Program-made: the position numbers and the translations under genes
IMG/VR virus record: IMGVR_UViG_3300030002_000007
Span: 1 to 64,000 of that record
DNA from: a virus
DNA length: 64,000 bases
Direction: 5' to 3' (one strand)
Notes under the pieces: generated by a model
Database searches by the model: none
Seen by the model: only the letters and a program-made list of their open reading frames with translations
What the model was told of the DNA's origin: nothing
In this document: positions 11,569-23,752 of the stretch, in pieces
Layout: the number at the start of each line of letters is the position of its first letter
Position numbering within the stretch: the first letter of the stretch is position 1

Positions 11569-12235
11569 TCAGTCGTCGTCATCATCGAAGTCATCATCTT
11601 CATCGACAACCTTTTTCTTCTTGGCCGGAGCCTTCTTCTTCGGAGCAGGTTCATCGTCGTCATCTTCGTCCGCATCGAAGTCATCGTCTTCATCAACGAC
11701 TTTCTTCTTTTTCGCGGGAGCCTTCTTCTTCGGTGCTGGCTCGTCGTCATCCTCGAAGTCGTCATCTTCATCGACGACCTTCTTGGACTTCTTCTTTGCC
11801 GGCGCGGGTTCATCATCCTCGTCGTCATCAAAGTCATCTTCGTCGACTACCTTCTTCTTTTTCGCAGGAGTCTTCTTCTTTGGAGCCGGTTCATCTTCGT
11901 CATCGTCGAAGTCATCCTCGTCAACGACTTTCTTTTTCTTCTTCGGCGCCGGTTCATCTTCTTCGTCGTCGCTGTCGAAGTCGTCTTCGTCTTCGTCGAC
12001 TACCTTCTTCTTTTTGGCCGCAACTTTCTTCTTGGGGGCCGGCTCGTCGTCATCCTCGCCGTCAAAGTCATCTTCGTCTTCATCAACGACCTTTTTCTTC
12101 TTGGCCGTAGCCTTCTTCTTCGGTGCTGGCTCGTCGTCATCCTCGTCTTCGTCGAAGTCCTCGTCAACTACCTTCTTCGACTTCTTCGGTGCGGGCTCGT
12201 CGTCCTCGTCAGCATCTTCGACCTTCTTCTTTTTC
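11569..12235 (-). repeat. Eight imperfect tandem repeats coding the charged tail
   Basis: In-frame tandem repeats of about 75-90 bp, each coding an acidic block, the peptide EPAPKK, a lysine run and VVDED. Units differ in length and in synonymous codons. They could still promote slippage or recombination that changes tail length. Confidence 0.75.
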
Positions 12236-13041
12236 TTGCCGGCGTTGACCTTGAAGCCCATGCTTAAGGCCCAACGCTCGAAGTTTGCACGAGTGCCTTC
12301 TTCGCTGTCTGCTGAGCTGAGGTCGGACAGATCCCACAGTAAGTAGGCCAATTCTTCTTCAGTAAGCGGAGTCTTGGCTTCACGCGGAACGACTTGATAT
12401 TGCTCAGACGGAGCCTTGTCGCTATCGTAGAGCACGCGAATGTCGCAACCATACTTCGGATGGCTAACCGGGAAGCACTTCACTTCACCCGAGCGGCTTT
12501 CGATAGTGTTGAGTTCTTTCAAGCCCTTGATCTTGCCGGCCAAACTTGTCGGAATGCGAACGGCAACGACTGGAGTCAGTGTATCGCTGTCCTTGTCCTT
12601 GAAGCCAGTGGTACGCTCGATCTTGGTGGGCTTGTTGTCTTCCGCATTGAACTTGCGCTGTAATGAACGGCTGATCATGCACACCCAATAGTTCTTGACG
12701 AACTGAATCGGGGAACGCCAGTTCTTCATGTCCTCGCCGTCACTCTCGGCTTTGGCACGCAGCTTGGCTTCGGCATCACGCCACGGATCATAGATCGTGG
12801 AATCGCGCTCTTGCGTTGCCGGGTCGAATGACGGACACTCGACATAGTACTTGATCGGCTTGCCTTCCTTGTTCTTGCCAGCGATCCAGTAGCCGGCATA
12901 AGCAAACACCTTGCCGAGGACTCGCATTTGGATCCACTTCTTTTCGGGGAAGTGATAGACGTCAACCTTATCCTCTGGCCGACTCTTCTTCTCTCTTCCG
13001 CCACCCTTTACGTCGTCAAAATCAGTACCTGCACGGCCCAT
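11569..13041 (-). CDS. Putative ssDNA-binding protein with repeated charged tail
   Basis: 490 aa. Residues 1 to about 265 form a globular domain with aromatic and basic patches (FPEKKWIQMRVLG, FVKNYWVCMISRSLQRKF). Residues about 270-490 are a polyampholyte tail made of eight imperfect units of the type DDEPAPKKK-x-AKKKKVVDEDDDFD. Position next to the recombinase and the acidic end (DDDFDDDDD) are typical of replication ssDNA-binding proteins such as T4 gp32, whose acidic tail binds partners. The fold itself is not certain from sequence. Codons vary between units, so the repeats are maintained at protein level rather than being a recent DNA duplication. Confidence 0.6.
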   Translation of the reverse strand: MGRAGTDFDDVKGGGREKKSRPEDKVDVYHFPEKKWIQMRVLGKVFAYAGYWIAGKNKEGKPIKYYVECPSFDPATQERDSTIYDPWRDAEAKLRAKAESDGEDMKNWRSPIQFVKNYWVCMISRSLQRKFNAEDNKPTKIERTTGFKDKDSDTLTPVVAVRIPTSLAGKIKGLKELNTIESRSGEVKCFPVSHPKYGCDIRVLYDSDKAPSEQYQVVPREAKTPLTEEELAYLLWDLSDLSSADSEEGTRANFERWALSMGFKVNAGKKKKKVEDADEDDEPAPKKSKKVVDEDFDEDEDDDEPAPKKKATAKKKKVVDEDEDDFDGEDDDEPAPKKKVAAKKKKVVDEDEDDFDSDDEEDEPAPKKKKKVVDEDDFDDDEDEPAPKKKTPAKKKKVVDEDDFDDDEDDEPAPAKKKSKKVVDEDDDFEDDDEPAPKKKAPAKKKKVVDEDDDFDADEDDDDEPAPKKKAPAKKKKVVDEDDDFDDDDD

Positions 13042-14001: not shown

Positions 14002-14421
14002 TCACAGCCCAGCGATTTGGTTTCTGAGCTTCAGGTACAGAGCAACGAGATGCTTGCACTGACCGACCACTTGAGTTGGGTTCGTCATGTCAGGTGGCTG
14101 ACCATTGGAGTACTCGAGATCAGCGGCCTTGCGTTTGTGTAATGCGTACTCATACCGGTACATGAAGTCAGGACAGGAGCAAGACACATTCACATGCAGC
14201 TTCTTGTCGATGAATTCGACGACTGTGACGTACCGTGTGCGATCTGGATTTACCCGCACCCGGCCATGCACATCGTAGTGATGCGTGGAGTACGACTTGC
14301 AGGCTGCGTAGCCGGTACCTCGTGGAGTGTAACCTGCCTTGAACTGCACAAGCCGAACAAACTTGGCATTGGATCTACGAACAGGATCAGTGCGGGTGAC
14401 AATAGTGCTGAGCTTTAACAT
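14002..14421 (-). CDS. SWIM zinc-finger-like protein
   Basis: 139 aa. Contains CSCPDF followed about 45 residues later by CKHLVALYL, which fits the SWIM pattern C-x-C-x(n)-C-x-H. SWIM domains bind DNA or proteins and occur in recombination factors and transposases. AGGAGC lies 8 nt before the ATG at 14421. No catalytic domain accompanies it, so it may be an adaptor. Function unknown. Confidence 0.65.
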   Translation of the reverse strand: MLKLSTIVTRTDPVRRSNAKFVRLVQFKAGYTPRGTGYAACKSYSTHHYDVHGRVRVNPDRTRYVTVVEFIDKKLHVNVSCSCPDFMYRYEYALHKRKAADLEYSNGQPPDMTNPTQVVGQCKHLVALYLKLRNQIAGL

Positions 14422-14433
14422 GAAATGTGCTCC

Positions 14434-14892
14434 TTAGAAATCCCCGAATGCCGTCTGGTAGCAAACAACGCCAAGAGACCGCCACATCGAGACAACACGG
14501 TTGCGATCCTCGAATACCAAGAAGACATCTTTCGGTAAAATGCCCTCCAGCTCAAGGAGGTACGGCTTGAGTATGTCGTCGTGCATGTGATCGCCTGTGA
14601 TCGCATCCGGGCGCATGAGCAACTGCGCAGAGATGATCGAAGGTGATACGTACTTCTTCAATTGCTGCAAGGTGAGCGCTCGCGCCATCTCCGGCCGGCC
14701 GGTCACGAAATAGAAGCGGTAATCAGAATCACTCAGGAACTTGCGATAGATCTCGACACCTTGCGGTATCGGCGTGTCCAAGTGATGATTGTCGTTCCAG
14801 CCCTTCAAGTCATTCGACAAGAAGAACGGGAGTCTTTCTTCTGAGCAAATGCAGCAGCCATCAATGTCTGCAACGATAACGTTCTTTGTCAC
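14434..14892 (-). CDS. HAD-superfamily phosphatase
   Basis: 152 aa. HAD motif I is VADIDGC (Asp9 nucleophile, Asp11 acid/base), motif II FVTGRPE, and motif IV FEDRNRVVSMWRSLG. The layout resembles the 3'-phosphatase domain of T4 polynucleotide kinase and related phage enzymes, but no kinase domain is attached. Substrate may be a nucleotide, nucleic-acid end or sugar phosphate. The start is GTG at 14892 overlapping the upstream TGA. It lies just downstream of the 7-deazaguanine genes and may be cotranscribed with them. Confidence 0.8.
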   Translation of the reverse strand: MTKNVIVADIDGCCICSEERLPFFLSNDLKGWNDNHHLDTPIPQGVEIYRKFLSDSDYRFYFVTGRPEMARALTLQQLKKYVSPSIISAQLLMRPDAITGDHMHDDILKPYLLELEGILPKDVFLVFEDRNRVVSMWRSLGVVCYQTAFGDF

Positions 14893-15113
14893 GTGTCCAC
14901 CTCGTCCATTTCAGTTTCCATGCAGTAATCGTCAACGCGACGAATACTCCCATCTGCTTCCACTACACCAACTGCGATCAGCCGAGCCATACCGTACCTA
15001 GGCTCTGTTGGAAGGATGACTTCAAACCCCTTTCCCAGTTGGTCAGGAACCAAAATGGAACCTACATGAACAACACGAACGTCTACGTTTGAGGAAAGGG
15101 ACTTGACCATCAC
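14889..15113 (-). CDS. Hypothetical protein, 73-74 aa
   Basis: Small, mostly beta-type sequence (VRVVHVGSILVP, GFEVILPTEPRYG, IAVGVVEADGSI) with an acidic end. Start may be GTG at 15113 or ATG at 15110. Both overlap the folE stop. Function unknown. Overlapping junctions on both sides place it firmly in the folE transcription unit. Confidence 0.5.
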   Translation of the reverse strand: MMVKSLSSNVDVRVVHVGSILVPDQLGKGFEVILPTEPRYGMARLIAVGVVEADGSIRRVDDYCMETEMDEVDT

Positions 15114-15877
15114 CTTGAAAGCTCCACGAGTTGGAAGAATTCAGCACGAGCCATAGCATTATTGCGCATGGCACCCCGCGTCACAGAATTCACCATCAAG
15201 GAGTCTGGATCTTTGACACCTCGATGGCTGCAACACAAATGCTTGGCACGAATCAGCACAGCCAGGCCTTCAGGCTGAGTACAGTCTTCCAAGAAGTCAG
15301 CTATGCGCATCGCCCATTCTTCCTGTATTTGAGGACGGGAAGAAATGTGATCGATTGACCTATGAAATTTGGACAGTCCGATCAGTGCATCTTTTGCGAT
15401 AACACCAACCCATGCGTGCCCGGTGATAGGAACCATGTGATGCGCACAGACACTGCGTATCGTGATGGGCCCGACTACGTACATCTCGTCGATCTGTGTA
15501 ACGTTGGGGAACTCGGTGATCGCGGGGGGCGGGAAATAACGACCCCGATACAATTCCGTAATCATCATCTTTGCCCAACGATTTGCGGTGTCTTTTGAGT
15601 TGTGGTCGTTCTCAGTGTCGATCAGCAAAGCGGCCAACACCGCTTGGAACTTGTCGGCCACTTCTTTCTGCAGGTCGACCAAAGCTCCTTCAGGTATGGC
15701 CTCATAAACTGTGTCTGTACCAAGGGCTGGTAAGCCAAGCTTCTTAATCTCCAGCCACAGGTACTCGCTGCAAGTAAGTGGCGGAACGTAGGGCCCGCTG
15801 TCTATGGCAACAGTAGCCATTACACTGTCGACGGTATTAGCATTGGCAATCTTTGTCAGGGCTTCAAGAGCATCCAT
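15110..15877 (-). CDS. folE: GTP cyclohydrolase I
   Basis: 255 aa. Converts GTP to 7,8-dihydroneopterin triphosphate, the first step of folate and of 7-deazaguanine synthesis. Zinc ligands are seen in SVCAHHMVP (Cys144, His146 or 147) and HLCCSHRGV (Cys215/216 with His218). The substrate loop GLSKFHRSIDHISSRPQIQE is conserved. Full FolE length. In this context the product feeds QueD, QueE and QueC, encoded upstream in the same leftward cluster. The ATG is at 15877, 13 bp after the queE stop. Confidence 0.93.
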   Translation of the reverse strand: MDALEALTKIANANTVDSVMATVAIDSGPYVPPLTCSEYLWLEIKKLGLPALGTDTVYEAIPEGALVDLQKEVADKFQAVLAALLIDTENDHNSKDTANRWAKMMITELYRGRYFPPPAITEFPNVTQIDEMYVVGPITIRSVCAHHMVPITGHAWVGVIAKDALIGLSKFHRSIDHISSRPQIQEEWAMRIADFLEDCTQPEGLAVLIRAKHLCCSHRGVKDPDSLMVNSVTRGAMRNNAMARAEFFQLVELSR

Positions 15878-15890
15878 TGAGTACTTGTCC

Positions 15891-16721
15891 TTATGCGAGA
15901 TTTACAAAGAGGTGTGTCTGGAGTGACAGCTTCAAGCCATCGTGCTGCAGCACGTACTGCGCTGCGTATTCGTAATTCTTCTTCGTCGCTTCATGATCGA
16001 CGAGCGTCGCATCCCACACGCTGGCCACTTCGCCTTCAGGCGCTCGGAGGTAACGGGCCATCGGCGATACGTAGACCGGGATCATAGAATTCGCCATGAG
16101 GTCGAATGCCCAATCCGGAAGCTCGTGATGTGGGCTGTCCTCGTCGGCGTCGATCACGAACTTCAGGAAGCCATTCATCTCGATCATGTTGAGTACGTCG
16201 AAAGGAATCTTCATGCACTCTTTGGTCTTGTAGTTGGCTTTGGGTGACACGCCGAAGCACACCTTGCCGAATATCTCTTCGGGCAACTGGCGAAGCTGTT
16301 GCGAGAACTGAGGATTGGTACCGTTGCTCTCGAACTGGAAGATCTCGAACGAGGGGCCGACATGCTCTAGGCGCACTAACACATCGAGGATCAGAGGCTG
16401 GAGAGTTGGCTCCCCGCCAGTGATAACGAGGATCACACTCTTGCGATTACCGCGCAAGGTAGTCAACAGGTTTGCAAGCTCTGAGGGTGTGATCTTGGTG
16501 GCGTTCTCCATCTTGAAGTTCGTATCGCAGAACTGACAGAAGTTTGTCTTGTCACCGAAGTTGCACCCAGCCAAACGAACGAACACCGCAGGGTGTCCCG
16601 CGTACGGGCCTTCGCCTTGGATCGTTAACCATGCACCACTAACGTAAAGGTGTGTGGCGTCTTTGAACTCATTTCGAGTCACTGAGCGATCAGTGTTGTG
16701 GGTGACGATAGGTATTACCAT
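15891..16721 (-). CDS. queE: 7-carboxy-7-deazaguanine synthase (radical SAM)
   Basis: 276 aa from the ATG at 16721 (GAGGCAACATT upstream). QueE rearranges 6-carboxytetrahydropterin to 7-carboxy-7-deazaguanine. Seen: TIQGEGPYAGHPAVFVRLAG, the cluster-binding cysteines Cys53, Cys62 and Cys65 in the spacing C-x8-C-x2-C rather than the classic C-x3-C-x2-C, FCDTNF, and the SAM-binding TGGEP. Widened first spacings are known in some QueE subtypes, but this exact spacing is worth noting. A truncated second copy of the gene's 5' end lies directly upstream. Confidence 0.9.
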   Translation of the reverse strand: MVIPIVTHNTDRSVTRNEFKDATHLYVSGAWLTIQGEGPYAGHPAVFVRLAGCNFGDKTNFCQFCDTNFKMENATKITPSELANLLTTLRGNRKSVILVITGGEPTLQPLILDVLVRLEHVGPSFEIFQFESNGTNPQFSQQLRQLPEEIFGKVCFGVSPKANYKTKECMKIPFDVLNMIEMNGFLKFVIDADEDSPHHELPDWAFDLMANSMIPVYVSPMARYLRAPEGEVASVWDATLVDHEATKKNYEYAAQYVLQHDGLKLSLQTHLFVNLA

Positions 16722-16858
16722 AATGTTGCCTCTTTCCCTCGTAAGAAATCGGACTCCCATATTGTCAGGAAGGTCGAAGAAACAAACAAATGCTTCTCGT
16801 CCTTGAAGTCCTGACGCAGAGCCACGTGGTCTGCATTATGAATCTTGATCGGTTGCAT
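16715..16858 (-). pseudogene. Truncated duplicate of the queE 5' end
   Basis: A 47-codon frame whose product parallels the QueE N-terminus: it reads 'PIKIHNADHVALRQDFKDEK' then HLFVSSTFLTIW where QueE reads 'PIVTHNTDRSVTRNEFKDAT' then HLYVSGAWLTIQ. The similarity stops where QueE continues with GEGPYAG, and the frame then runs across the queE ribosome binding site to end at 16715. It begins inside the 3' end of the preceding gene. It lacks all catalytic residues. Best explained as a remnant of a tandem duplication or of allele replacement. Translation as a leader peptide is possible. Confidence 0.7.
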
Positions 16859-17318
16859 AGACTGACGCCTTTCCATTTCCGTACACCCGATCGTGAACCT
16901 CTTGAGGCGTGAGGGCCAAGTACCGAGTGAACCGCTTGTTTTCAATAGTTGACACATCACCAGTTCGATAGAAGGCTTCGAGCTGATCACTGTCAGGGAA
17001 TTTGTACGACGGGCCATACACCTTGATCTTGTTGGGTGCGACCTTGCGAGGGAACGTTGTCTTCACAAGCATGCCCGAGGGCTGAACGGCGTACCCAAGC
17101 ATTGGAATCCCTGCTGACTGGAGGAACGCCAAGTTCGCAATCACCAAAACGTTCTTGTGACCCTTCCTATTTACAGGATTGGATAACGATGTGACCCCGA
17201 AAACAAGGAGTGCATCAATCACTTTTGCGTACGCATCGACGGTGGGATTGAAGAACGGAATACCGTAGATGTTCTCATGCTCTACTGAAAAGTATTTCTT
17301 GACTGGCGTCTTCTTCAC
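16836..17318 (-). CDS. Hypothetical protein in the 7-deazaguanine cluster
   Basis: 160 aa, not recognised. Mixed alpha/beta, with segments VIDALLVFGVTSLSN, NVLVIANLAFLQSAGIPMLG and KVYGPSYKFPDSDQLEAFY. Starts with GTG at 17318 overlapping the dpdA TGA (GTGA), so translation is coupled to dpdA. The coupling suggests a role with DpdA, for example as partner or in a later step on the modified base. This is inference from position only. Confidence 0.6.
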   Translation of the reverse strand: MKKTPVKKYFSVEHENIYGIPFFNPTVDAYAKVIDALLVFGVTSLSNPVNRKGHKNVLVIANLAFLQSAGIPMLGYAVQPSGMLVKTTFPRKVAPNKIKVYGPSYKFPDSDQLEAFYRTGDVSTIENKRFTRYLALTPQEVHDRVYGNGKASVYATDQDS

Positions 17319-18745
17319 TTCGCTCCCTTTGCCTTTCCTGCAATGCCATGAAACTCTTCGTAGCGTTCGATGGCTTTGGTTGTTATTGCGCCTGCCTTCA
17401 AATGGCGATCTGCGACCGTGGCAACTTTGAACAGGCCACTTGGAGCAGACGACTTGCGAAGGAAGCCTTCCAGCACTTCACGATGCTTTGCCCATGCGGG
17501 GTGGAAGCCATTACCCATGTCCATCGTGAAACGATACAGCGCCCGGCACATGTCGGTCAGTCCGGAGGGCGCGGTGATGTTCAAGAGTTCAGACATCTTG
17601 ATCTGACCCTTCAGCATCGCCACCGTAGCTTCGTTTACCACAGCATACATCTGGAACATGGTGTGCATACCGTGCAACGCATTCCCCATCGCCGCCAGCT
17701 TGAAGGCTAACGGGTTCCCGGCTACGTAGCAGATCGGGCAATTGCAAGGCAGCGCAAAGCTGAACGTCTGATTCGGAATTGCAAAGTTCGCGATCTTCGA
17801 TTCCATCGTGTGCCGGATACCCAAGCTGCTGTGCGAGATCGCAGCCTGTGCATACGTTGACGAATCCGAACTGATGAATGGCGCCATACCAAGTGCAGTA
17901 AGGATGATGTAGATCGAGATCATGAATGGGTTGGTGGTTCCCAAGACGTGATACCTTTCGTACTCACCCTTCGTCAAATCTAGGACTGCCGACAAATTCA
18001 CAACTGCCATGAGCTGTGAAGTGAATGCGGTGTCGTAGTTGGCCTGACCGATACCGCCCAACGCTAACCCTACCCCGGCCTTGTGCTTCATGATGTACTC
18101 GGTGAACCTCAACCGATTCGCCAACGTGAGGCCGTGACTCACATCATAGATCGCGGCTTCACTGTTCAGGCTCTTCAGATGACCAGCAATGTACTTGTCG
18201 TTCAAAGCTGTCACTCGGGCCATCCTCATAAACCACTCCGTGTCTTGCAAGTGGCGAGAAAGCGGAATGTCCAAGCCGATGCCGTAGTCAACGTGGCGGT
18301 GATAATGATTGACCAGCTTGTCGGGTTCAATGAACGTCTCAACGCCCTTCGACAACTGGAAGCCACCTGAGTCAGAAAAGATCTTCACCAAGCCGTTACG
18401 CTTGTGGTACGCATCCGGATGCTCGGGCAGCACCATCATGTGGTTGTATCCGATCGACTTCAGCATCTCCGGGTTACTTAACGGAGACAAAGGGAAGCAC
18501 ACATCGAACGCTTCGGACGCAATGCCTGCTGACGAAACGGAACCCATGCCGTAATACACAGTGCGATCGGGTAGGTACATCGTATCCAACCCGAGCTTGC
18601 GCTCTACGGTGTAGGGAGGCTTTTTTGGCTTACCAAACTTCGCCGCGAAGTAACTGTTCCGCGAGATCGAACAGACTGAGGCCGGCATGATCTCGACCTT
18701 AGCTGTACGACGGATTTCAACCGATGGCTTCTTTTGGGTATTCAT
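17315..18745 (-). CDS. dpdA: DpdA-like DNA 7-deazaguanine transglycosylase
   Basis: 476 aa from the ATG at 18745. Related to tRNA-guanine transglycosylase. DpdA proteins exchange guanine in DNA for a 7-deazaguanine base. Seen: SDSGGFQLS (residues about 124-132, with Asp125), a second acidic strand SSDSSTY (Asp294, candidate nucleophile), GLALGG with HVLGT, and the zinc site CNCPIC (Cys334, Cys336, Cys339) with His358 or His361 nearby. The companion queC, queD, queE and folE supply preQ0. Target sequence preference cannot be read from the sequence. Confidence 0.87.
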   Translation of the reverse strand: MNTQKKPSVEIRRTAKVEIMPASVCSISRNSYFAAKFGKPKKPPYTVERKLGLDTMYLPDRTVYYGMGSVSSAGIASEAFDVCFPLSPLSNPEMLKSIGYNHMMVLPEHPDAYHKRNGLVKIFSDSGGFQLSKGVETFIEPDKLVNHYHRHVDYGIGLDIPLSRHLQDTEWFMRMARVTALNDKYIAGHLKSLNSEAAIYDVSHGLTLANRLRFTEYIMKHKAGVGLALGGIGQANYDTAFTSQLMAVVNLSAVLDLTKGEYERYHVLGTTNPFMISIYIILTALGMAPFISSDSSTYAQAAISHSSLGIRHTMESKIANFAIPNQTFSFALPCNCPICYVAGNPLAFKLAAMGNALHGMHTMFQMYAVVNEATVAMLKGQIKMSELLNITAPSGLTDMCRALYRFTMDMGNGFHPAWAKHREVLEGFLRKSSAPSGLFKVATVADRHLKAGAITTKAIERYEEFHGIAGKAKGAK

Positions 18746-19472
18746 AATCAATCATCTCGAGGGCCGGAAGGATTTCCTGTTTTCTGTGATCGTCGTAGTA
18801 CGTGCCATAGAGCATCTCGTAAATGATGCGCTGGTTCTCTTCGACGTTCAAGGGATAGATGTTGTACTTCTCAGTCAGTCCCAACTGCGTGAAAATTCCC
18901 CAACGCCTGAAACAGACGACACACGCCCCACATTTGCCAGCCTCGCCAGAAAGACACGAAGAGGAATCAATGATCTCCTGAGCAGGGAGGCCGGCATCCA
19001 ACGCCCACTTGGTAGCTGTGAACTTGTTGAAGCCCGCATCAGCAAGAGGAAAGCGCACTTGGATCTTCGTCTTGAACGGAGACAGTACATAATTCAAGGT
19101 GCGATTTGCATGCTCGAGGAACTCGTAGTTCTTGTCGGTGCCATGCGCGACTGTCTCACCGAGAAGGGCACCCATCCAGATTTCGTCAGGCAGGTCAGCG
19201 CAAGCAACCAGAGTAGCAAGCACCAAGTTGCGACCGGGGATGTAAATGTTACCCGACGTGCTGCCTTCCTTCGCTGCGGCAGCCTTGCCACCGAGCCAAT
19301 CGAGCTTGCGACGAATCACGTAGTCGGGGAGGGCGGCCATTTCCTTCTCAAGGTACTCTTGGCCTATATCGTAGAACACGCAAACAACTTCGGCTTCAGG
19401 GAAATAGAACTCGGCGTACTTCTTCATAATGAGCGAATCAAGTCCGCCAGAAAACAGGATGACGATTTTCAT
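18717..19472 (-). CDS. queC: 7-cyano-7-deazaguanine synthase
   Basis: 251 aa. ATP-dependent conversion of 7-carboxy-7-deazaguanine plus ammonia to preQ0. PP-loop SGGLDS at residues 8-13 and the zinc motif with Cys173, Cys181, Cys184 and Cys187 (CLSGEAGKCGACVVC) are complete. NIYIPGRN matches the conserved substrate-binding loop. AAGGA lies 6 nt before the ATG. It overlaps the dpdA start by 29 bp, so the two are coupled. Confidence 0.92.
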   Translation of the reverse strand: MKIVILFSGGLDSLIMKKYAEFYFPEAEVVCVFYDIGQEYLEKEMAALPDYVIRRKLDWLGGKAAAAKEGSTSGNIYIPGRNLVLATLVACADLPDEIWMGALLGETVAHGTDKNYEFLEHANRTLNYVLSPFKTKIQVRFPLADAGFNKFTATKWALDAGLPAQEIIDSSSCLSGEAGKCGACVVCFRRWGIFTQLGLTEKYNIYPLNVEENQRIIYEMLYGTYYDDHRKQEILPALEMIDYEYPKEAIG

Positions 19473-19474
19473 GA

Positions 19475-19714
19475 CTAGTCCTTCTTCATGAGATCAACGA
19501 TGGGGAGGTCAACCATAGCACGGACGACTCGGACTTCAGCACCTTCGGACACTTCAACGATCCGGGCAACAACGCCGGAACGAGTCGTGATAACAGCGCC
19601 GTCAGGGCTCGCTACTGCTTCCTGAAACATCGCAGTCAGCCGACTCAGATCCTCTGCCGAGGGGTTCCAGTCAGGCCCACCCGCTTCGATATGCAAAATT
19701 TGACGTAAGCTCAT
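19475..19714 (-). CDS. Hypothetical protein, 79 aa
   Basis: Start chosen at the ATG at 19714 because AAGGAG precedes it by 7 nt. Short protein with a helical N-terminal half (SAEDLSRLTAMFQEAVA) and a small beta part (AVITTRSGVVARIVEV, EVRVVRAMV). Lies 2 bp upstream of queC in the same operon. Function unknown. Confidence 0.55.
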   Translation of the reverse strand: MSLRQILHIEAGGPDWNPSAEDLSRLTAMFQEAVASPDGAVITTRSGVVARIVEVSEGAEVRVVRAMVDLPIVDLMKKD

Positions 19715-19718
19715 TGCT

Positions 19719-20225
19719 CTACTCCTTCTGTGAATTGGTTGAAGTACCGTCGCGGAACAATCCGTGGTCACCTTCGACCACTCGATCCATTTCTTCGTAA
19801 GGGAACACTACCCAGTTGGGAGTGATCAACGCAGTCGACTGTGCAATGTGCGCGAAGTCTCCACCGTCGTACCGAGAGTCGATCACCGCTGGATAGATTT
19901 CGTAATTGAGAGTATCCGGTGCCCACTTCATGTGCGCGTGAATGCACTGAACGGTTCTGCCTGTAGCTATCACGTCTTCGAGATAGACGTAAGTAGCATC
20001 GCGCTCCACAGGCTCCGCGTAGTTCCGCGAGGGATGTAACGACTGACCCGACGCCGGGTAGTAAGTGCCAACAGGCATTGCCAACTTGTAGCCAACCAGC
20101 TGGGCCAAGGTCATGCCGCCGCGTACCACAGCAAACAAGTAGGGGTTGGTGATCCGCGCCTTGATGTCTTCTGCAATGGCATAGGCAATCTTCTGCAGCT
20201 CAGCATACGTCATCTGGTGTTTCAT
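19719..20225 (-). CDS. Phosphoribosyltransferase-family protein
   Basis: 168 aa. The PRPP-binding signature VYLEDVIATGRT (residues 80-91) and the upstream loop AVVRGGMTLAQLVG mark a type I phosphoribosyltransferase of the hypoxanthine/xanthine type. Such enzymes join a nucleobase to PRPP or run the reverse reaction. Start at 20225 with AGGAG before it. In a 7-deazaguanine cluster it could salvage the displaced guanine or act on a deazapurine base. That is inference, and an ordinary purine-salvage role is the simpler alternative. Confidence 0.78.
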   Translation of the reverse strand: MKHQMTYAELQKIAYAIAEDIKARITNPYLFAVVRGGMTLAQLVGYKLAMPVGTYYPASGQSLHPSRNYAEPVERDATYVYLEDVIATGRTVQCIHAHMKWAPDTLNYEIYPAVIDSRYDGGDFAHIAQSTALITPNWVVFPYEEMDRVVEGDHGLFRDGTSTNSQKE

Positions 20226-20227
20226 GT

Positions 20228-21394
20228 TTACTCCTTTACTGGTGAGGGCCAAGGTTTACGATTTCTGAATTTCTGATCTTCGAGTGCCCAATCGATACCA
20301 ATGTGATCTTGGGCGAATGGGTGCCACGCTCTCCGACCTGTCCACGAGGTATCTGGATCACTCCAGAACTCATTCAACGGACTCAAGCCAAGAGGGAGTA
20401 GGAAGAACGCTGTGGCATACAAGCTGCCGGTGCTGATGTAAGAATCTGCGAGGGCTTCATCCACGGACACTAGTCCCGGTGTCAAGAAGCCTTCTGAGAA
20501 CATGTGAGGCAGCATCAACTTCAGCGAGGCAGTCAGCGCACATCGAACTGCTGCGGGCCTTATGCCTGTATTTACAATGTCACCATGGAGGGCGCCGTAG
20601 GCAAGTGCGTAGAAGGCACCGAGCCGATAAACGATTGAACGTCCGATTGCCGGGAAGCTTCCCGTCTCTGAGAACTGGCGCTCTTGGATTTCGAGGAAGC
20701 GCAAATAGCGAGCAACAAACACATCCCCCGTAGCTAAGGCGAAGGCACCCGGTATGGCTTTCATCAAATCTTGGATCGCCGGATGTACCACGATACTGTT
20801 GTAGTAGTTGGAGCTGTACAGTGGGCCATCACCATAGATACCATCTCCAACATAGAAGCCATTGAAGGTGTGGATGGCTCGACGCACTGCACTCGAATAT
20901 TGACTGGCGTACGTAATGTCCGTCTCTTGCACGTACAGGAATGCGGTGACCAATGCCTTCTGCAGAATCCAGTTGTTGTCGTAGACGGGCATCATGTTGA
21001 CAGACTGCAGCCAATGAACGAACGAGTGCCGTCCGTAAGAGTCCATCGCCTTCCAAAGCTTGGGACTCCGAGTGAACGCCTGACACAAGTATCCAGCCTC
21101 AATCACGCTCTGCTGCTCCAGCGCAGGTCCTCCGCTGTTGAACAGCGCGCGGAGGCATTCAACAGCCGAGTCATAGAGCTGATGACGCCTACGCAATTCG
21201 GTCTCAGTACACACTGGCATCGACAAGTCCGCTTGGAACCAAGGAGCAAGACCGCAGGTGGTTCTCGCAATAGCCTCGAGCTCAGAGCTTACAGGATTGC
21301 CAGTATGCAGCTCCGGCATCTTCGCACCAGAGTAGACTGGGGTTGCCAGCTGGACAGCAAAATTCACCCACAGCTTACGTGCTTCATTTCGCAT
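20228..21394 (-). CDS. DUF2264-family protein
   Basis: 388 aa from the ATG at 21394. Family signatures recognised by eye: YGDGPLYSSNYYNSIVVHP, then FPAIGRSIVYRLGAFYALA, RCALTASLKLMLP and SYISTGSLYATAFFLLPLG, followed by FWSDPDTSWTGRRAW. DUF2264 proteins of bacteria are uncharacterised, with an alpha/alpha-toroid look shared with glycoside hydrolases and lyases. No signal peptide is present, so it should act in the cytoplasm. It overlaps the glycosyltransferase gene by 11 bp, which implies a linked function, perhaps in handling a sugar on the modified base or on a host polymer. The link is inferred. Confidence 0.8.
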   Translation of the reverse strand: MRNEARKLWVNFAVQLATPVYSGAKMPELHTGNPVSSELEAIARTTCGLAPWFQADLSMPVCTETELRRRHQLYDSAVECLRALFNSGGPALEQQSVIEAGYLCQAFTRSPKLWKAMDSYGRHSFVHWLQSVNMMPVYDNNWILQKALVTAFLYVQETDITYASQYSSAVRRAIHTFNGFYVGDGIYGDGPLYSSNYYNSIVVHPAIQDLMKAIPGAFALATGDVFVARYLRFLEIQERQFSETGSFPAIGRSIVYRLGAFYALAYGALHGDIVNTGIRPAAVRCALTASLKLMLPHMFSEGFLTPGLVSVDEALADSYISTGSLYATAFFLLPLGLSPLNEFWSDPDTSWTGRRAWHPFAQDHIGIDWALEDQKFRNRKPWPSPVKE

Positions 21395-22175
21395 AGTGAT
21401 CACCTGTCCATGAACCGCCAATGAACGCATGCTCCATACCCATGTGGATTGCTTCACATCCAGTCACTAGCGTGATCTCGATCTTGTTCTCGTTGAGCAG
21501 CTCTTCAAGGCGAACATCGTAACCGCGAACACCCTTCACTTTGAACTTCTCGAGTATGTCGTCCCATAGCTCTGGAGCCTTCCACAACGCCTTGGGCAAA
21601 CAATAGAGCTGTGTGATCGCCGGGTACTTGTGGTGGTAGGCCACTTGCTCGAAGCGATGGTGCTTTGCCTTGTCCATTTCCATGCCGGGCGTGCGAAGGT
21701 ATGCGAACATCGAAGGAAAGATCTCGGTCGTGTAGTCAGCGTAACCCCGACTATCGTTTGCATCTACCACGCCCAAAGTCGCAACGCGATGAGTCTTAGC
21801 ACGATGGACGCATTGCTTCAGGCGATACCACGCATGTCTAGGAACAAGAAGGTCGTCATCAAGGTTGATGAAGAAGTCAAACTCAATCAGCGGATCGACG
21901 TTGCGCTTAGTGTGGGCAACCGACATATCAGCTGGAACGGCCTTGACGATCAGTGCGTTACCTGTGAACTCAGCGAGCAGCTTAAGGTACGGGAACGGAG
22001 AGCATTCAGGCACTTCCCCGTAATGCTGGATGTTGAAGATAGCACCACTGACTGAAGTCATGACGGCTGCGAGTGTCATCGGCAGCAGGTGGTAACGCGA
22101 CGGGCTTGTTGTTGTGAGGAACAGAAAACCATCTAGTGATGTTTGACTAGAGGTCGTTGCTCTGGGGTGTGACAT
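21384..22175 (-). CDS. Glycosyltransferase-like protein (GT-A type)
   Basis: 263 aa. The N-terminus reads like a GT-A fold (FLFLTTTSPSRYHLLPMTLA), and FFINLDDDLLVP (Asp106-108) provides the metal- and nucleotide-sugar-binding D-x-D. Downstream segments AYLRTPGMEMDK and a final DVRLEELLNENKIEITLV fit the acceptor half. Known GTs in phages glucosylate hydroxymethylcytosine or modify capsid or host surface. Here the neighbours are 7-deazaguanine genes, so transfer to a 7-deazaguanine derivative is an attractive, untested reading. Start at 22175 with GGGAG, overlapping the kinase gene. Confidence 0.75.
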   Translation of the reverse strand: MSHPRATTSSQTSLDGFLFLTTTSPSRYHLLPMTLAAVMTSVSGAIFNIQHYGEVPECSPFPYLKLLAEFTGNALIVKAVPADMSVAHTKRNVDPLIEFDFFINLDDDLLVPRHAWYRLKQCVHRAKTHRVATLGVVDANDSRGYADYTTEIFPSMFAYLRTPGMEMDKAKHHRFEQVAYHHKYPAITQLYCLPKALWKAPELWDDILEKFKVKGVRGYDVRLEELLNENKIEITLVTGCEAIHMGMEHAFIGGSWTGDHYAK

Positions 22176-22630
22176 GAATACTCCCTGACAAATGAAAGGA
22201 CTGACTTGCGTAGTACGATAACAGCACTAGGAATATCCTCTACAGACGAGACCTCTAGGAAGGTCGTTGCTTCGACTGGAGAGGGAGGAACAAACAAGAC
22301 TGCAGTGTCAGGATAAGGGCACGGCTGACCGGTGTTCATGTAGACGAGAATGTCCGGCTGCACTATGTGGCGATACTCGACGCACAGGCAGGCGAAGTCC
22401 AAGATGGCCACCGCATTCAGTGAGCCACAGTTGAGCCTCGCCAGTCTTGCCATGCGTACAGCTTGATGCCAACGACCTGTATCGGAGAAGTCCCAGTCGT
22501 CGTACATCGCGTGGATGTCATCTTCATTCAGCCAAGTGGCATTCACGGTGTCGATCAACGCCGCGTGCAGGGCCTTAGCTAGTAGGGACTTGCCCGAATT
22601 AGGCAGTCCCATAACAAGGACCTTAATCAC
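22133..22630 (-). CDS. P-loop kinase, adenylylsulfate-kinase-like
   Basis: 165 aa from the GTG at 22630, 3 bp after the queD stop with AGGAA upstream. Walker A is GLPNSGKS (residues 8-15), then TWLNEDDIHAMYDDWDFS and RWHQAVRMARLARLN, which parallel the acceptor-binding and helical lid parts of APS kinases (D-G-D-x-x-R region). APS kinase relatives in phages phosphorylate diverse small molecules or modified bases. The substrate is unknown. The C-terminal 20 residues lie over the glycosyltransferase start. Confidence 0.72.
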   Translation of the reverse strand: MIKVLVMGLPNSGKSLLAKALHAALIDTVNATWLNEDDIHAMYDDWDFSDTGRWHQAVRMARLARLNCGSLNAVAILDFACLCVEYRHIVQPDILVYMNTGQPCPYPDTAVLFVPPSPVEATTFLEVSSVEDIPSAVIVLRKSVLSFVREYSCHTPEQRPLVKHH

Positions 22631-22632
22631 GA

Positions 22633-23235
22633 CTATTCCTGAACGTAAAGCGAATGGCTCTTCGGAGTCTCCCACCAGTCTACAGACGCCACGCGACACA
22701 GGCGCTGCATCTTCCACGCGACAATATCGAACATCCACTTACTGAGGTTCTCACTCGTCGGCACGAAGTCGACGATGAAGAAGCTTTCCAGATACTCGCG
22801 CATATGGATCGGAAGCTCCGGAGGAAGCATGATGCGACGACCCACGACCATCTGCGAATACATGCCGCCGCTATTCGGAGAGTTGGCAACGTCCGTGCGT
22901 TCGATCTTCCACGGATACAGAATTGCGTCCGGGTGGCCGGGCATATTGAGCAACGACTGCATGAGAGGATCATTAACGTCGATGATGAAGTGGTGATCGA
23001 TGATCTGGTTCAGGAACGTCTTGAGCCATTCGAGGTGACGGAAATCCGTGACCATGCCATTGCGGAGTTCGATGCCACCGAGCAGCGAAGTGAGCGTAAC
23101 GTCTACCTTGCCTTCGTGGCCGTGCAGATGTCGGCAAGCACACAGAAGATCGCTGGCGAACTCAGAGTCAAGAGTCTGACTCCACACGCGGTGACCATAA
23201 CAGAATTCGACGGCCTTCGTTATAAAGTGGGGCAT
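22633..23235 (-). CDS. queD: 6-carboxytetrahydropterin synthase
   Basis: 200 aa from the ATG at 23235 (AAAGGAA upstream). QueD makes 6-carboxy-5,6,7,8-tetrahydropterin from the FolE product. Zinc and catalytic residues: His15 in FCYGHRV, and CRHLHGHEGK with Cys34, His38 and His40, plus VTDFRHLEWLK and the substrate-related NDHH-type segment IIDHHF. Longer than typical QueD (about 120-150 aa) because of a C-terminal extension containing ESFFIVDFVPTSENLS, which holds the conserved P-T-x-E-N element. Confidence 0.9.
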   Translation of the reverse strand: MPHFITKAVEFCYGHRVWSQTLDSEFASDLLCACRHLHGHEGKVDVTLTSLLGGIELRNGMVTDFRHLEWLKTFLNQIIDHHFIIDVNDPLMQSLLNMPGHPDAILYPWKIERTDVANSPNSGGMYSQMVVGRRIMLPPELPIHMREYLESFFIVDFVPTSENLSKWMFDIVAWKMQRLCRVASVDWWETPKSHSLYVQE

Positions 23236-23237
23236 TG

Positions 23238-23546
23238 CTATTCCTTTCGGGGTGTGATGATTGAAATATCGACCTTGCGGGTATCGGATAGCTTGAAGCT
23301 CATTACTTTGGCACAAGCTACGTTGGAGATCTCGGTAACATCGCCACCGAGCAGTTTGGGGAGGACGGTGATTATGAGCTTCATGTGGTTGCTGTCTTCA
23401 GTCCTAGGCACAGCAACCAGATCAAGATCGTTGTCGCTATAGCCGTTGTTCAACACCCCACCAGCCAAGGCTAGGTAGTAGCCTGCCGCCATGACCTCAG
23501 GTTGCATAACGCGAATTAACCGAAGGGCTTCATCAGTCGTCCACAT
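23238..23546 (-). CDS. Nucleotidyltransferase-fold protein
   Basis: 102 aa from the ATG at 23546, which overlaps the upstream stop (TGATG). AGGVLNN followed by YSDNDLDLVAVP gives the G-G/S...D-x-D pattern of minimal nucleotidyltransferases (Gly29-Gly30, Asp40, Asp42), with a later strand KVDISII that could supply the third carboxylate. Such enzymes transfer NMP to proteins, RNA or small molecules. It lies 2 bp upstream of queD, so it is in the same transcription unit. Substrate unknown. Confidence 0.68.
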   Translation of the reverse strand: MWTTDEALRLIRVMQPEVMAAGYYLALAGGVLNNGYSDNDLDLVAVPRTEDSNHMKLIITVLPKLLGGDVTEISNVACAKVMSFKLSDTRKVDISIITPRKE

Positions 23547-23752
23547 CACAGACCCATCCATTTTGTTACGGCAGAGAATCCCGGAGCCTTTTCCCACAAC
23601 CAGTGTTCAATAGGAAAGCCCAATGTAGTGCCTATCCAGAACGAGGAGTCCATCAACACTGATTTACAGGAATGGTAACAGGAAACCAGAAGCCCAGTGC
23701 GGTCATAGTGATAGTGGCGCTTGCCGGCCTCAGTCTTTGGAAACTTTATCAT
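23546..23752 (-). CDS. Hypothetical protein, 68 aa
   Basis: Small aromatic-rich protein (HYHYDRTG, SSFWIGTTLGF, IEHWLWEK). GAGG precedes the ATG at 23752. Overlaps the metalloprotease gene by 23 bp and the nucleotidyltransferase gene by one base. Function unknown. Confidence 0.5.
   Translation of the reverse strand: MIKFPKTEAGKRHYHYDRTGLLVSCYHSCKSVLMDSSFWIGTTLGFPIEHWLWEKAPGFSAVTKWMGL

What the first reader, a model, noticed from the sequence alone, without database searches (positions are those of the whole stretch)
14889..23546. 7-deazaguanine DNA-modification locus with interleaved sugar, kinase, phosphoribosyl- and nucleotidyl-transferase genes
Seen: complete folE, queD, queE and queC plus a DpdA-like transglycosylase, all on one strand. 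Interleaved are a nucleotidyltransferase-fold protein, an APS-kinase-like P-loop enzyme, a GT-A glycosyltransferase, a DUF2264 protein and a phosphoribosyltransferase. Known: FolE-QueD-QueE-QueC make preQ0 and phage DpdA inserts 7-deazaguanines into DNA. Inference: the extra enzymes may further decorate the inserted base (phosphate, sugar) or recycle the displaced guanine, giving an undescribed hypermodified nucleoside. No QueF, ArcS or Gat-QueC partner was recognised in the window, so simple preQ0 or an unusual derivative is expected.
Basis: partly seen in the sequence, partly recalled or inferred. Interest (0 to 1): 0.9.

Follow-up and report, generated by a model that had tools for sequence, protein, structure and literature searches.

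The report
Phage operon decorating modified DNA guanine
This phage operon probably swaps guanines in its DNA for a modified base made with an unusual QueC-like enzyme and then dresses that base with a processed sugar, a kind of DNA decoration that would help the phage escape bacterial defences.

Summary
One minus-strand operon (about 13.0-23.7 kb) encodes folE, queD, queE, a QueC-family protein and a divergent DpdA-type transglycosylase, with a kinase, a putative glycosyltransferase (GT), DUF2264, a phosphoribosyltransferase (PRT), a PNKP-type HAD phosphatase and small partners. New here: (1) the QueC is not canonical. It belongs to a subfamily seen so far only in viruses (28 IMG/VR contigs; one pattern scan of genome contigs found none) that lost the base-stacking Tyr and the Cys of YPDC but keeps the Asp. 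Plain preQ0 is doubtful. (2) DUF2264 is a relative of beta-D-glucuronate dehydratase with 9 of 10 active-site residues kept. (3) The slot beside QueC/DpdA exchanges tailoring genes: GT+DUF2264 here and in L049; APS-kinase-like plus sulfotransferase-like genes in three relatives; myo-inositol-1-phosphate synthase in 17 of the 28 contigs and in 16 Stenotrophomonas phage records. (4) PRT recurs in many of these loci. Most likely: 7-carboxy-7-deazaguanine is activated by the variant QueC, inserted by DpdA and decorated with a sugar or polyol. The chemistry is inferred; the GT call rests on motifs and context. My searches listed no paper describing it. New variant of a known kind.

The parts
23238..23597 (-). 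small ORF with GGxxNxGYSDxDLDL motif (nucleotidyltransferase-like by eye), before queD
   Evidence: No Pfam or PHROG family; its stop lies next to queD's ATG; no tblastn match in the loci compared, so membership unproven
22633..23235 (-). queD (6-carboxytetrahydropterin synthase family, with an insertion)
   Evidence: PTPS 2e-21, PHROG QueD-like 2.2e-30; candidate start ATG 23235
22133..22630 (-). APS-kinase-like P-loop kinase (shorter than that of relatives)
   Evidence: Pfam APS_kinase 8.2e-5; 4-sequence profile to APS kinase 2yvu 3.8e-13
21384..22175 (-). putative GT-A glycosyltransferase (NxDDD motif)
   Evidence: Homologs near dpdA in L015 (2e-13) and L049; D106-D107-D108 invariant in three sequences; no library hit
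20228..21394 (-). DUF2264: predicted beta-D-uronate 4,5-dehydratase (former GH154)
   Evidence: Pfam 3.8e-58; PDB 9o4u 4.8e-47; 9 of 10 BcGDH active-site residues kept. Start codon uncertain (ORF from 21457)
19719..20225 (-). phosphoribosyltransferase, 6-oxopurine type
   Evidence: Pfam 4.9e-5; 6-sequence profile to purine PRT 1vdm 4.3e-11; LEDVIATGRT PRPP loop
19475..19714 (-). p98, small protein resembling a domain of phage portal proteins
   Evidence: PHROG portal 1.2e-9
18717..19472 (-). divergent QueC-family ATP-dependent enzyme (TDKN variant)
   Evidence: Pfam QueC 3.7e-13; residue comparison; 62-65% to L009-L011
17315..18751 (-). DpdA-like TGT-type transglycosylase
   Evidence: NCBIfam TgtA 3.8e-4, far below its cut-off
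16836..17318 (-). p160, conserved partner gene overlapping dpdA by 4 nt
   Evidence: Homologs directly after dpdA in L009, L010, L011 and Motura; AlphaFold2 pLDDT 75
15891..16760 (-). queE (7-carboxy-7-deazaguanine synthase)
   Evidence: 41-44% to Motura and L009-L011
15110..15877 (-). folE (GTP cyclohydrolase I)
14889..15113 (-). p74, small ORF
   Evidence: 4-nt overlaps with folE and HAD; no family
14434..14892 (-). HAD phosphatase, PNKP phosphatase-domain type
   Evidence: Pfam HAD_PNKP 2e-16; profile to T4-type PNK phosphatase 1.1e-8; in the cassettes of L009, L010, L011, L049
14002..14421 (-). SWIM-type zinc-finger protein
   Evidence: PHROG 18980 4.7e-18; homologs next to dpdA in several phages

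Best explanation
An operon that builds, installs and decorates a 7-deazaguanine in phage DNA. Family-level (well supported): FolE, QueD and QueE make 7-carboxy-7-deazaguanine (CDG), and a DpdA-type transglycosylase exchanges it or a derivative for guanine in DNA. Inferred: the variant QueC adenylates the CDG carboxylate but, having lost the stacking Tyr and the Cys of YPDC, makes something other than canonical preQ0, either an amide or a conjugate with a larger partner. Inferred: the GT adds a sugar, probably a uronate, to the base or its linker, and the DUF2264 enzyme dehydrates that terminal uronate to a 4,5-unsaturated one. PRT either recycles the guanine that DpdA releases or makes a ribosylated deazaguanine intermediate; HAD and kinase adjust phosphates. 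The GT+DUF2264 pair is one of several exchangeable tailoring modules (sulfate-type, inositol-type, other GTs) next to the same QueC/DpdA core.
For: Gene identities; tight operon. The set queD-kinase-X-PRT-queC-dpdA-p160-queE-folE plus HAD recurs in L009, L010 and L011 (HAD before queE in L009); in L010 it sits between p134 and p308 instead of between the peptidase and SWIM genes. GT+DUF2264 recurs with queD, queE, PRT, queC, HAD, dpdA and folE in L049. GT and PRT directly follow dpdA in L015. A family-4-like GT adjoins a TGT-like gene in Paride, ACP17 and X1 and lies by folE/queE in Phosso. QueC variant: 28 viral contigs, folE within the held flanks of 25 of 28, a TGT-like gene by any of three profiles in 19 of 28, inositol-1-phosphate synthase in 17 of 28. 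Residues: Y131 kept in 0 of 28, C134 in 0 of 28, H39 in 0 of 29, D133 in 28 of 28. Y35A, R99A, Y131A and Y189A are inactive in E. coli (PMC13329287 section 6); the Tyr/Asp pair stacks on and reads the base (PMC13279940 passages). DUF2264 active site kept. Cap9, a QueC relative, conjugates CDG to a protein amine.
Against: No chemistry is shown. The GT call rests on motif and neighbourhood only (no hit; an hhalign comparison with a TAGT-like protein of Cr30 failed). 16 of the 22 dpdA loci show no GT of either profile in the flanks held, so decoration is not a general DpdA feature. 11 of the 28 QueC-variant contigs show no inositol synthase and 18 no PRT in the flanks held. The window kinase is shorter and more divergent than its relatives'. 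No UDP-glucose dehydrogenase or epimerase in the record, so a uronate donor would have to come from the host. DUF2264 was seen without que genes in a 15-kb unverified record (L043). The acceptor group for a sugar is unknown. Profiles were built from sequences that they then find, so those hits hold by construction; some contigs are near-duplicates (L055/L056, L058/L060). Phage PhiXhv-12 has dpdA and a weak GT4 hit about 93 kb apart.
Confidence: 0.58

Rival explanations
1. Ordinary preQ0 or amido-deazaguanine modification: the divergent QueC still makes preQ0 or ADG, DpdA inserts it, and the GT, DUF2264, PRT and kinase have unrelated jobs such as altering host surface sugars or nucleotide salvage.
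For: ATP loop, RN motif, K165 and zinc cysteines of QueC are kept; phage preQ0, ADG and G+ are established (PMC6884629 passages); several dpdA loci lack the tailoring genes profiled.
Against: Loss of Y35, Y131 and Y189 equivalents in the window QueC; GT+DUF2264 interleaved with que genes twice; PRT relatives found only with dpdA (4 of 4).
Confidence: 0.22
2. Nucleotide-level route: PRT couples the deazaguanine base to PRPP and HAD/kinase adjust phosphates, as in 7-deazapurine nucleoside antibiotics (toyocamycin PRT and HAD steps, recalled), giving a modified nucleotide or signal in parallel with or instead of base exchange.
For: PRT belongs with 6-oxopurine PRTs (1vdm 4.3e-11); PRT and PNKP-type HAD recur together in L009-L011 and L049; PRTase plus HAD pairs are proposed to make nucleoside signals in Ter systems (PMC7824862 passage).
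Against: DpdA needs a free base, not a nucleotide; HAD is of the PNKP 3'-phosphatase type; many dpdA loci lack PRT.
Confidence: 0.1
3. The pathway modifies tRNA rather than DNA.
For: DpdA is a TGT homolog whose best solved match is the archaeosine tRNA TGT.
Against: Position near UvsX, sigma and primase genes; no tRNA or tmRNA gene in the window; characterised phage DpdA acts on DNA (PMC6884629 passages).
Confidence: 0.06

Closest known systems
Phage dG+/dPreQ0 systems (9g, CAjan, nt-1; Hutinet 2019, PMC6884629)
   Same: FolE, QueD, QueE, QueC family plus a DpdA transglycosylase
   Different: DpdA here not found by Pfam/PHROGs; QueC variant; added PRT, HAD, kinase, putative GT and uronate-dehydratase relative; no QueF above cut-off in the record
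Achromobacter phage Motura deazaguanine locus (noted in PMC7824862)
   Same: queD-queC-dpdA-p160-queE-folE-SWIM order
   Different: Motura has a QueC closer to canonical (Pfam 1.1e-36; keeps Y35 and Y189) and a GATase/asparagine-synthetase-like gene; none of my PRT, GT or DUF2264 profiles hit its 40.7 kb held
QueC-family enzymes Cap9 and QatC
   Same: QueC fold reused with another role; CDG carboxylate activation and conjugation shown for Cap9, proposed for QatC
   Different: They modify a protein N-terminus in bacterial defence; the phage variant keeps the Asp, loses the Tyr and has Lys for Cys
Bacteroides beta-D-glucuronate dehydratase BcGDH (former GH154, PMC12269599)
   Same: Sequence family and 9 of 10 active-site residues
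   Different: There a glycosaminoglycan-degrading enzyme; here inside a DNA-modification operon

Membership tests
Phage 7-deazaguanine DNA-modification (DpdA) systems | preQ0/CDG synthesis genes together with a TGT-like DpdA | tested here: met
Phage 7-deazaguanine DNA-modification (DpdA) systems | 7-deazaguanine present in virion DNA | not testable with these tools
   Needs LC-MS; uncultured virus
DpdA/TGT | Catalytic Asp residues and Cys/His zinc site | tested here: met
   D127, D161, D296, C336, C338, C341, H360 invariant in six sequences; their roles are recalled from TGT
DpdA2 subfamily (nt-1) | Sequence membership with nt-1 DpdA2 | not tested
   nt-1 sequence was not fetched
Canonical QueC (preQ0 synthase) | SGGxDS, (V/I)PxRN, zinc Cys motif | tested here: met
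   (C-x7-CxxCxxC in the window, not x8)
Canonical QueC (preQ0 synthase) | YxQxHxxE, YPDC and Y189 | tested here: not met
   Y35 to I, H39 to Y, YPDC to GTDK, Y189 to L in the window; signature from PMC13329287
beta-D-glucuronate dehydratase (DUF2264, former GH154) | Family match and active-site residues | tested here: met
   9o4u 4.8e-47; 9 of 10 residues, F181 replaced by Q166
beta-D-glucuronate dehydratase (DUF2264, former GH154) | 4,5-dehydratase activity | not testable with these tools
   Needs enzyme assay
APS kinase | Family score over curated cut-off and APS-binding residues | tested here: inconclusive
   Pfam 23.1 vs 21.1 bits; NCBIfam far below its cut-offs
GT-A glycosyltransferase | Recognised by a family or fold library | tested here: inconclusive
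   No hit; only NxDDD and other invariant residues
6-oxopurine phosphoribosyltransferase | PRPP loop and family profile | tested here: met
   the window sequence alone is below the Pfam cut-off

The most novel reading that the evidence does not exclude
A QueC subfamily seen only in viruses is a coupling enzyme that uses the CDG carboxylate as a handle to which phages attach exchangeable polyhydroxylated groups (inositol, uronate- or pentose-type sugars, sulfated groups) before or after DpdA insertion. In this phage the result would be a 4,5-unsaturated uronosyl-7-deazaguanine in DNA.
Probability: 0.3. Interest if true: 0.92.

Novelty: new variant of a known kind. Interest (0 to 1): 0.78.

Why it matters
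Known phage 7-deazaguanines are small (cyano, amido, aminomethyl and archaeosine forms in PMC6884629; a few methyl, formyl and carboxy forms are recalled). Sugar or polyol decoration of a transglycosylase-inserted guanine would be a new class of hypermodified DNA, would assign a DNA role to a uronate dehydratase and to phage inositol synthases, and would give an isolated test system: Stenotrophomonas Moby-type phages carry the inositol version of the same core.

Tried and rejected
A PNK-like reading of the kinase: the profile points to APS kinases; T4 polynucleotide kinase is weaker (0.0054). A close-relative scan with the window DpdA alone found nothing. p160: Foldseek and VIA gave no convincing fold (best Z 4.0), so its role is open. 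X (relatives only): model pLDDT 58; sulfotransferases lead Foldseek but none below E 0.001, and in VIA P-loop kinases tie within 1 Z; not claimed as proven. A profile of the X1/ACP17/Paride TGT-like proteins found no PDB relative. Their DpdA status rests on my 11-sequence profile (E 8.5e-6 Paride, 1.9e-4 X1, 0.005 ACP17; in the larger set ACP17 was no longer listed at 0.01), on a reverse profile from X1, ACP17, Moby and L062 that finds L005, L004 and L018 DpdA at 1e-5 to 6e-5, on PHROG 10773 shared by X1 and ACP17 and weakly by the Voja-6 and PhiXhv-12 DpdA, and on X1's own annotation. Comparison of the GT with a TAGT-like protein failed. BtrL-type O-ribosylation by PRT+HAD (recalled; one search found no held paper) was considered and left as a variant. 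The UDP-xylose-synthase reading of the L015/L018 SDR gene rests on a recalled motif; NCBIfam gives only sub-cut-off hits. The HAD-like and queD-like genes of L015 and L018 are named by eye (no Pfam hit for those tested).
Full report
What is there. The window is part of an 81,478-bp linear virus record. On the minus strand a polycistron runs from about 23.7 kb down to the sigma-like gene at 13.0 kb. Most stop-to-start distances are overlaps or under 15 nt, depending on the start codon chosen, often behind AGGA-like sequences; the longest ORF-to-ORF gap is 75 nt before queE. Order in transcription: p68, NTase-like ORF, queD, kinase, GT, DUF2264, PRT, p98, queC, dpdA, p160, queE, folE, p74, HAD, SWIM, sigma. 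Family support. The DpdA-like protein is invisible to Pfam and PHROGs, but it is TGT-related: tblastn to Motura 31%, profile to archaeosine TGT 1iq8 1.4e-10, invariant Asp and CxCxxC...H residues.

The QueC is unusual. Aligned with E. coli QueC, the window protein and its L009-L011 relatives keep SGGLDS, IPGRN, the K165 equivalent and the zinc cysteines. They change Y35 to I/L, H39 to Y, YPDC to G/ATDK and Y189 to L. The 2026 QueC paper (PMC13329287, outline and sections 6, 7 and 8 seen) reports Y35A, R99A, Y131A and Y189A as inactive. The QatC paper (PMC13279940, passages) says that the equivalent Tyr stacks on the 7-deazaguanine and the Asp reads its Watson-Crick edge. A profile scan found 28 IMG/VR contigs with relatives; one pattern scan of genome contigs found none. 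Over the window plus these 28: Y131 in 0 of 28 with a residue there, C134 in 0 of 28 (K in 27), H39 in 0 of 29, Y35 in 1 of 29, D133 in 28 of 28, Y189 in 6 of 27. So the family still seems to read a 7-deazaguanine but has opened the pocket. Cap9 is a known QueC relative that conjugates CDG to an amine, and QatC is proposed to do likewise.

What sits beside this QueC. In 17 of 28 contigs a myo-inositol-1-phosphate synthase gene lies upstream of it, starts within about 3.4 kb (Pfam Inos-1-P_synth 7.7e-22 and 3.5e-25 for the two tested). Not all 17 are independent: L055/L056 and L058/L060 are near-duplicates. Among 50,697 phage records, that synthase is found in 18: 16 Stenotrophomonas records and two records of Caulobacter phage Cr30. 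The QueC variant is found in 17 records, 16 of them Stenotrophomonas, the other a gut record at 28% identity. In Moby the order is folE, ino1, hypothetical, queC, TGT, queE. In Cr30 the synthase lies near an amino acid:DNA transferase gene (ADDT 1.3e-52) and a gene with a sub-threshold TET-associated GT hit, with no que genes of my profiles within 9 kb. So both contexts seen look like DNA-modification contexts. The records of the window, L009, L010, L011, L015, L018 and L049 have no such synthase (1 of 8 records, Moby, has it); some are fragments.

The window's own tailoring pair. DUF2264 matches PDB 9o4u and 9nwf, a beta-D-glucuronate dehydratase, at 4.8e-47 and 3.5e-46, and 8oi4, deposited as a beta-galactosidase, at 4.5e-42. 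The JBC 2025 paper (PMC12269599, passages) shows that BcGDH forms a 4,5-unsaturated uronate, lists ten residues whose Ala mutants had no detectable activity (on a poor substrate, as it says), and proposes that the whole GH154 family are dehydratases. By the alignment the window keeps E61, R65, N161, N162, W163, Y219, R273, Y277 and Y340; F181 is Q166. The same pair, GT plus DUF2264, recurs in L049 (GT profile; DUF2264 Pfam 6.8e-26) together with queD, queE, PRT, queC, HAD, dpdA and folE. In the L049 alignment the proposed catalytic Tyr/Arg/Tyr and NNW are kept but the R78 equivalent is not. GT as a name rests on NxDDD and other invariant residues and on context; no library recognised it.

Other tailoring modules. 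L009, L010 and L011 (dpdA 44-51% identical) have, between kinase and PRT, gene X instead of GT+DUF2264. X begins with a QRTGSKSL-type loop; Foldseek's best hits are sulfotransferases, none below E 0.001, and VIA Z about 9 is shared with P-loop kinases; model confidence is low. Their kinase scores as APS-kinase-like up to 2e-15. In L010 the cassette sits between p134 and p308 rather than between the peptidase and SWIM genes, so it can move as a unit. L015 has dpdA-GT-PRT-(HAD-like)-...-GT4-SDR-(queD-like); L018 has dpdA-(HAD-like)-PRT-methyltransferase-GT4-SDR-(queD-like); names in brackets are by eye, and GT4 scores below the Pfam cut-off. Neither record has a QueC match; both have FolE elsewhere. 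GT4 relatives in the phage collection: 19 records. I fetched 4 of the 19 loci: all 4 have queE, 3 have folE (ACP17, Phosso, X1), and 3 have a TGT-like gene next to the GT (Paride, ACP17, X1). Six of the 22 dpdA loci show a GT (L015, L017, L018, L020, L023, L026); 16 do not. Some of the 22 are duplicates.

PRT. The profile's best solved matches are purine PRTs. Profile matches at E below 1e-4 occur in the window, L009-L011, L015, L018, Paride, L049, L053, L055 (and near-identical L056), L061, L062 and L063. Among the 28 QueC-variant contigs that is 10 of 28. A scan with PRT returned four loci, all with dpdA; all four contigs had been found before through dpdA. Guanine released by DpdA is the simplest substrate; a deazaguanine is the bolder one.

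Mechanism and confidence. Shown: gene content, order, conservation, the altered QueC pocket, the kept dehydratase site, exchange of modules, co-occurrence. Inferred: CDG activation by the variant QueC, DNA as target, sugar transfer, dehydration on DNA, PRT substrate. No QueF over cut-off (two sub-cut-off matches, in L049 and Moby, fall inside folE), no UDP-glucose dehydrogenase and no epimerase in the window record, so a uronate donor would be the host's.

Literature. Hutinet 2019 (PMC6884629, outline and passages) and Iyer 2021 (PMC7824862, passages) describe phage deazaguanine systems, including Motura and PA5oct, without GT, PRT or inositol partners in the passages seen. Searches combining 7-deazaguanine or queuosine with glycosylation, glycosyltransferase, PRT or inositol terms listed no paper that by its title and abstract start reports such decoration. 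Only held open-access papers were searched, and Cui et al. 2023 (recalled) was not held.

Noticed in passing
14002-14421; L004, L005, L006, L007, L012-L014, L016, L019, L021, L024, L025: A SWIM-type zinc-finger protein follows dpdA closely in these large-phage loci, several with no que gene nearby, and often lies beside a sigma-like gene; it may be a DNA-binding partner of DpdA.
   Followed up: partly
16836-17318: p160 overlaps dpdA by 4 nt and has homologs directly after dpdA in Motura and L009-L011; no known fold was found.
   Followed up: partly
19475-19714: p98 resembles a domain of phage portal proteins, yet lies between PRT and queC; similar stretches occur in Motura and in the PhiXhv-12 portal.
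   Followed up: no
L074 6723-10170 (Caulobacter phage Cr30): Inositol-1-phosphate synthase near an amino acid:DNA transferase (ADDT) gene and a TAGT-like gene, suggesting inositol in another DNA hypermodification.
   Followed up: partly
11569-13041: SSB-like protein with a long acidic/lysine repeat tail (KKKVVDEDDFDDDEDEPAPKKK-like), seen by eye.
   Followed up: no
L003 18037-19317 (Motura): A GATase plus asparagine-synthetase-like protein sits between queC and dpdA, a further possible carboxylate-amidating step.
   Followed up: no
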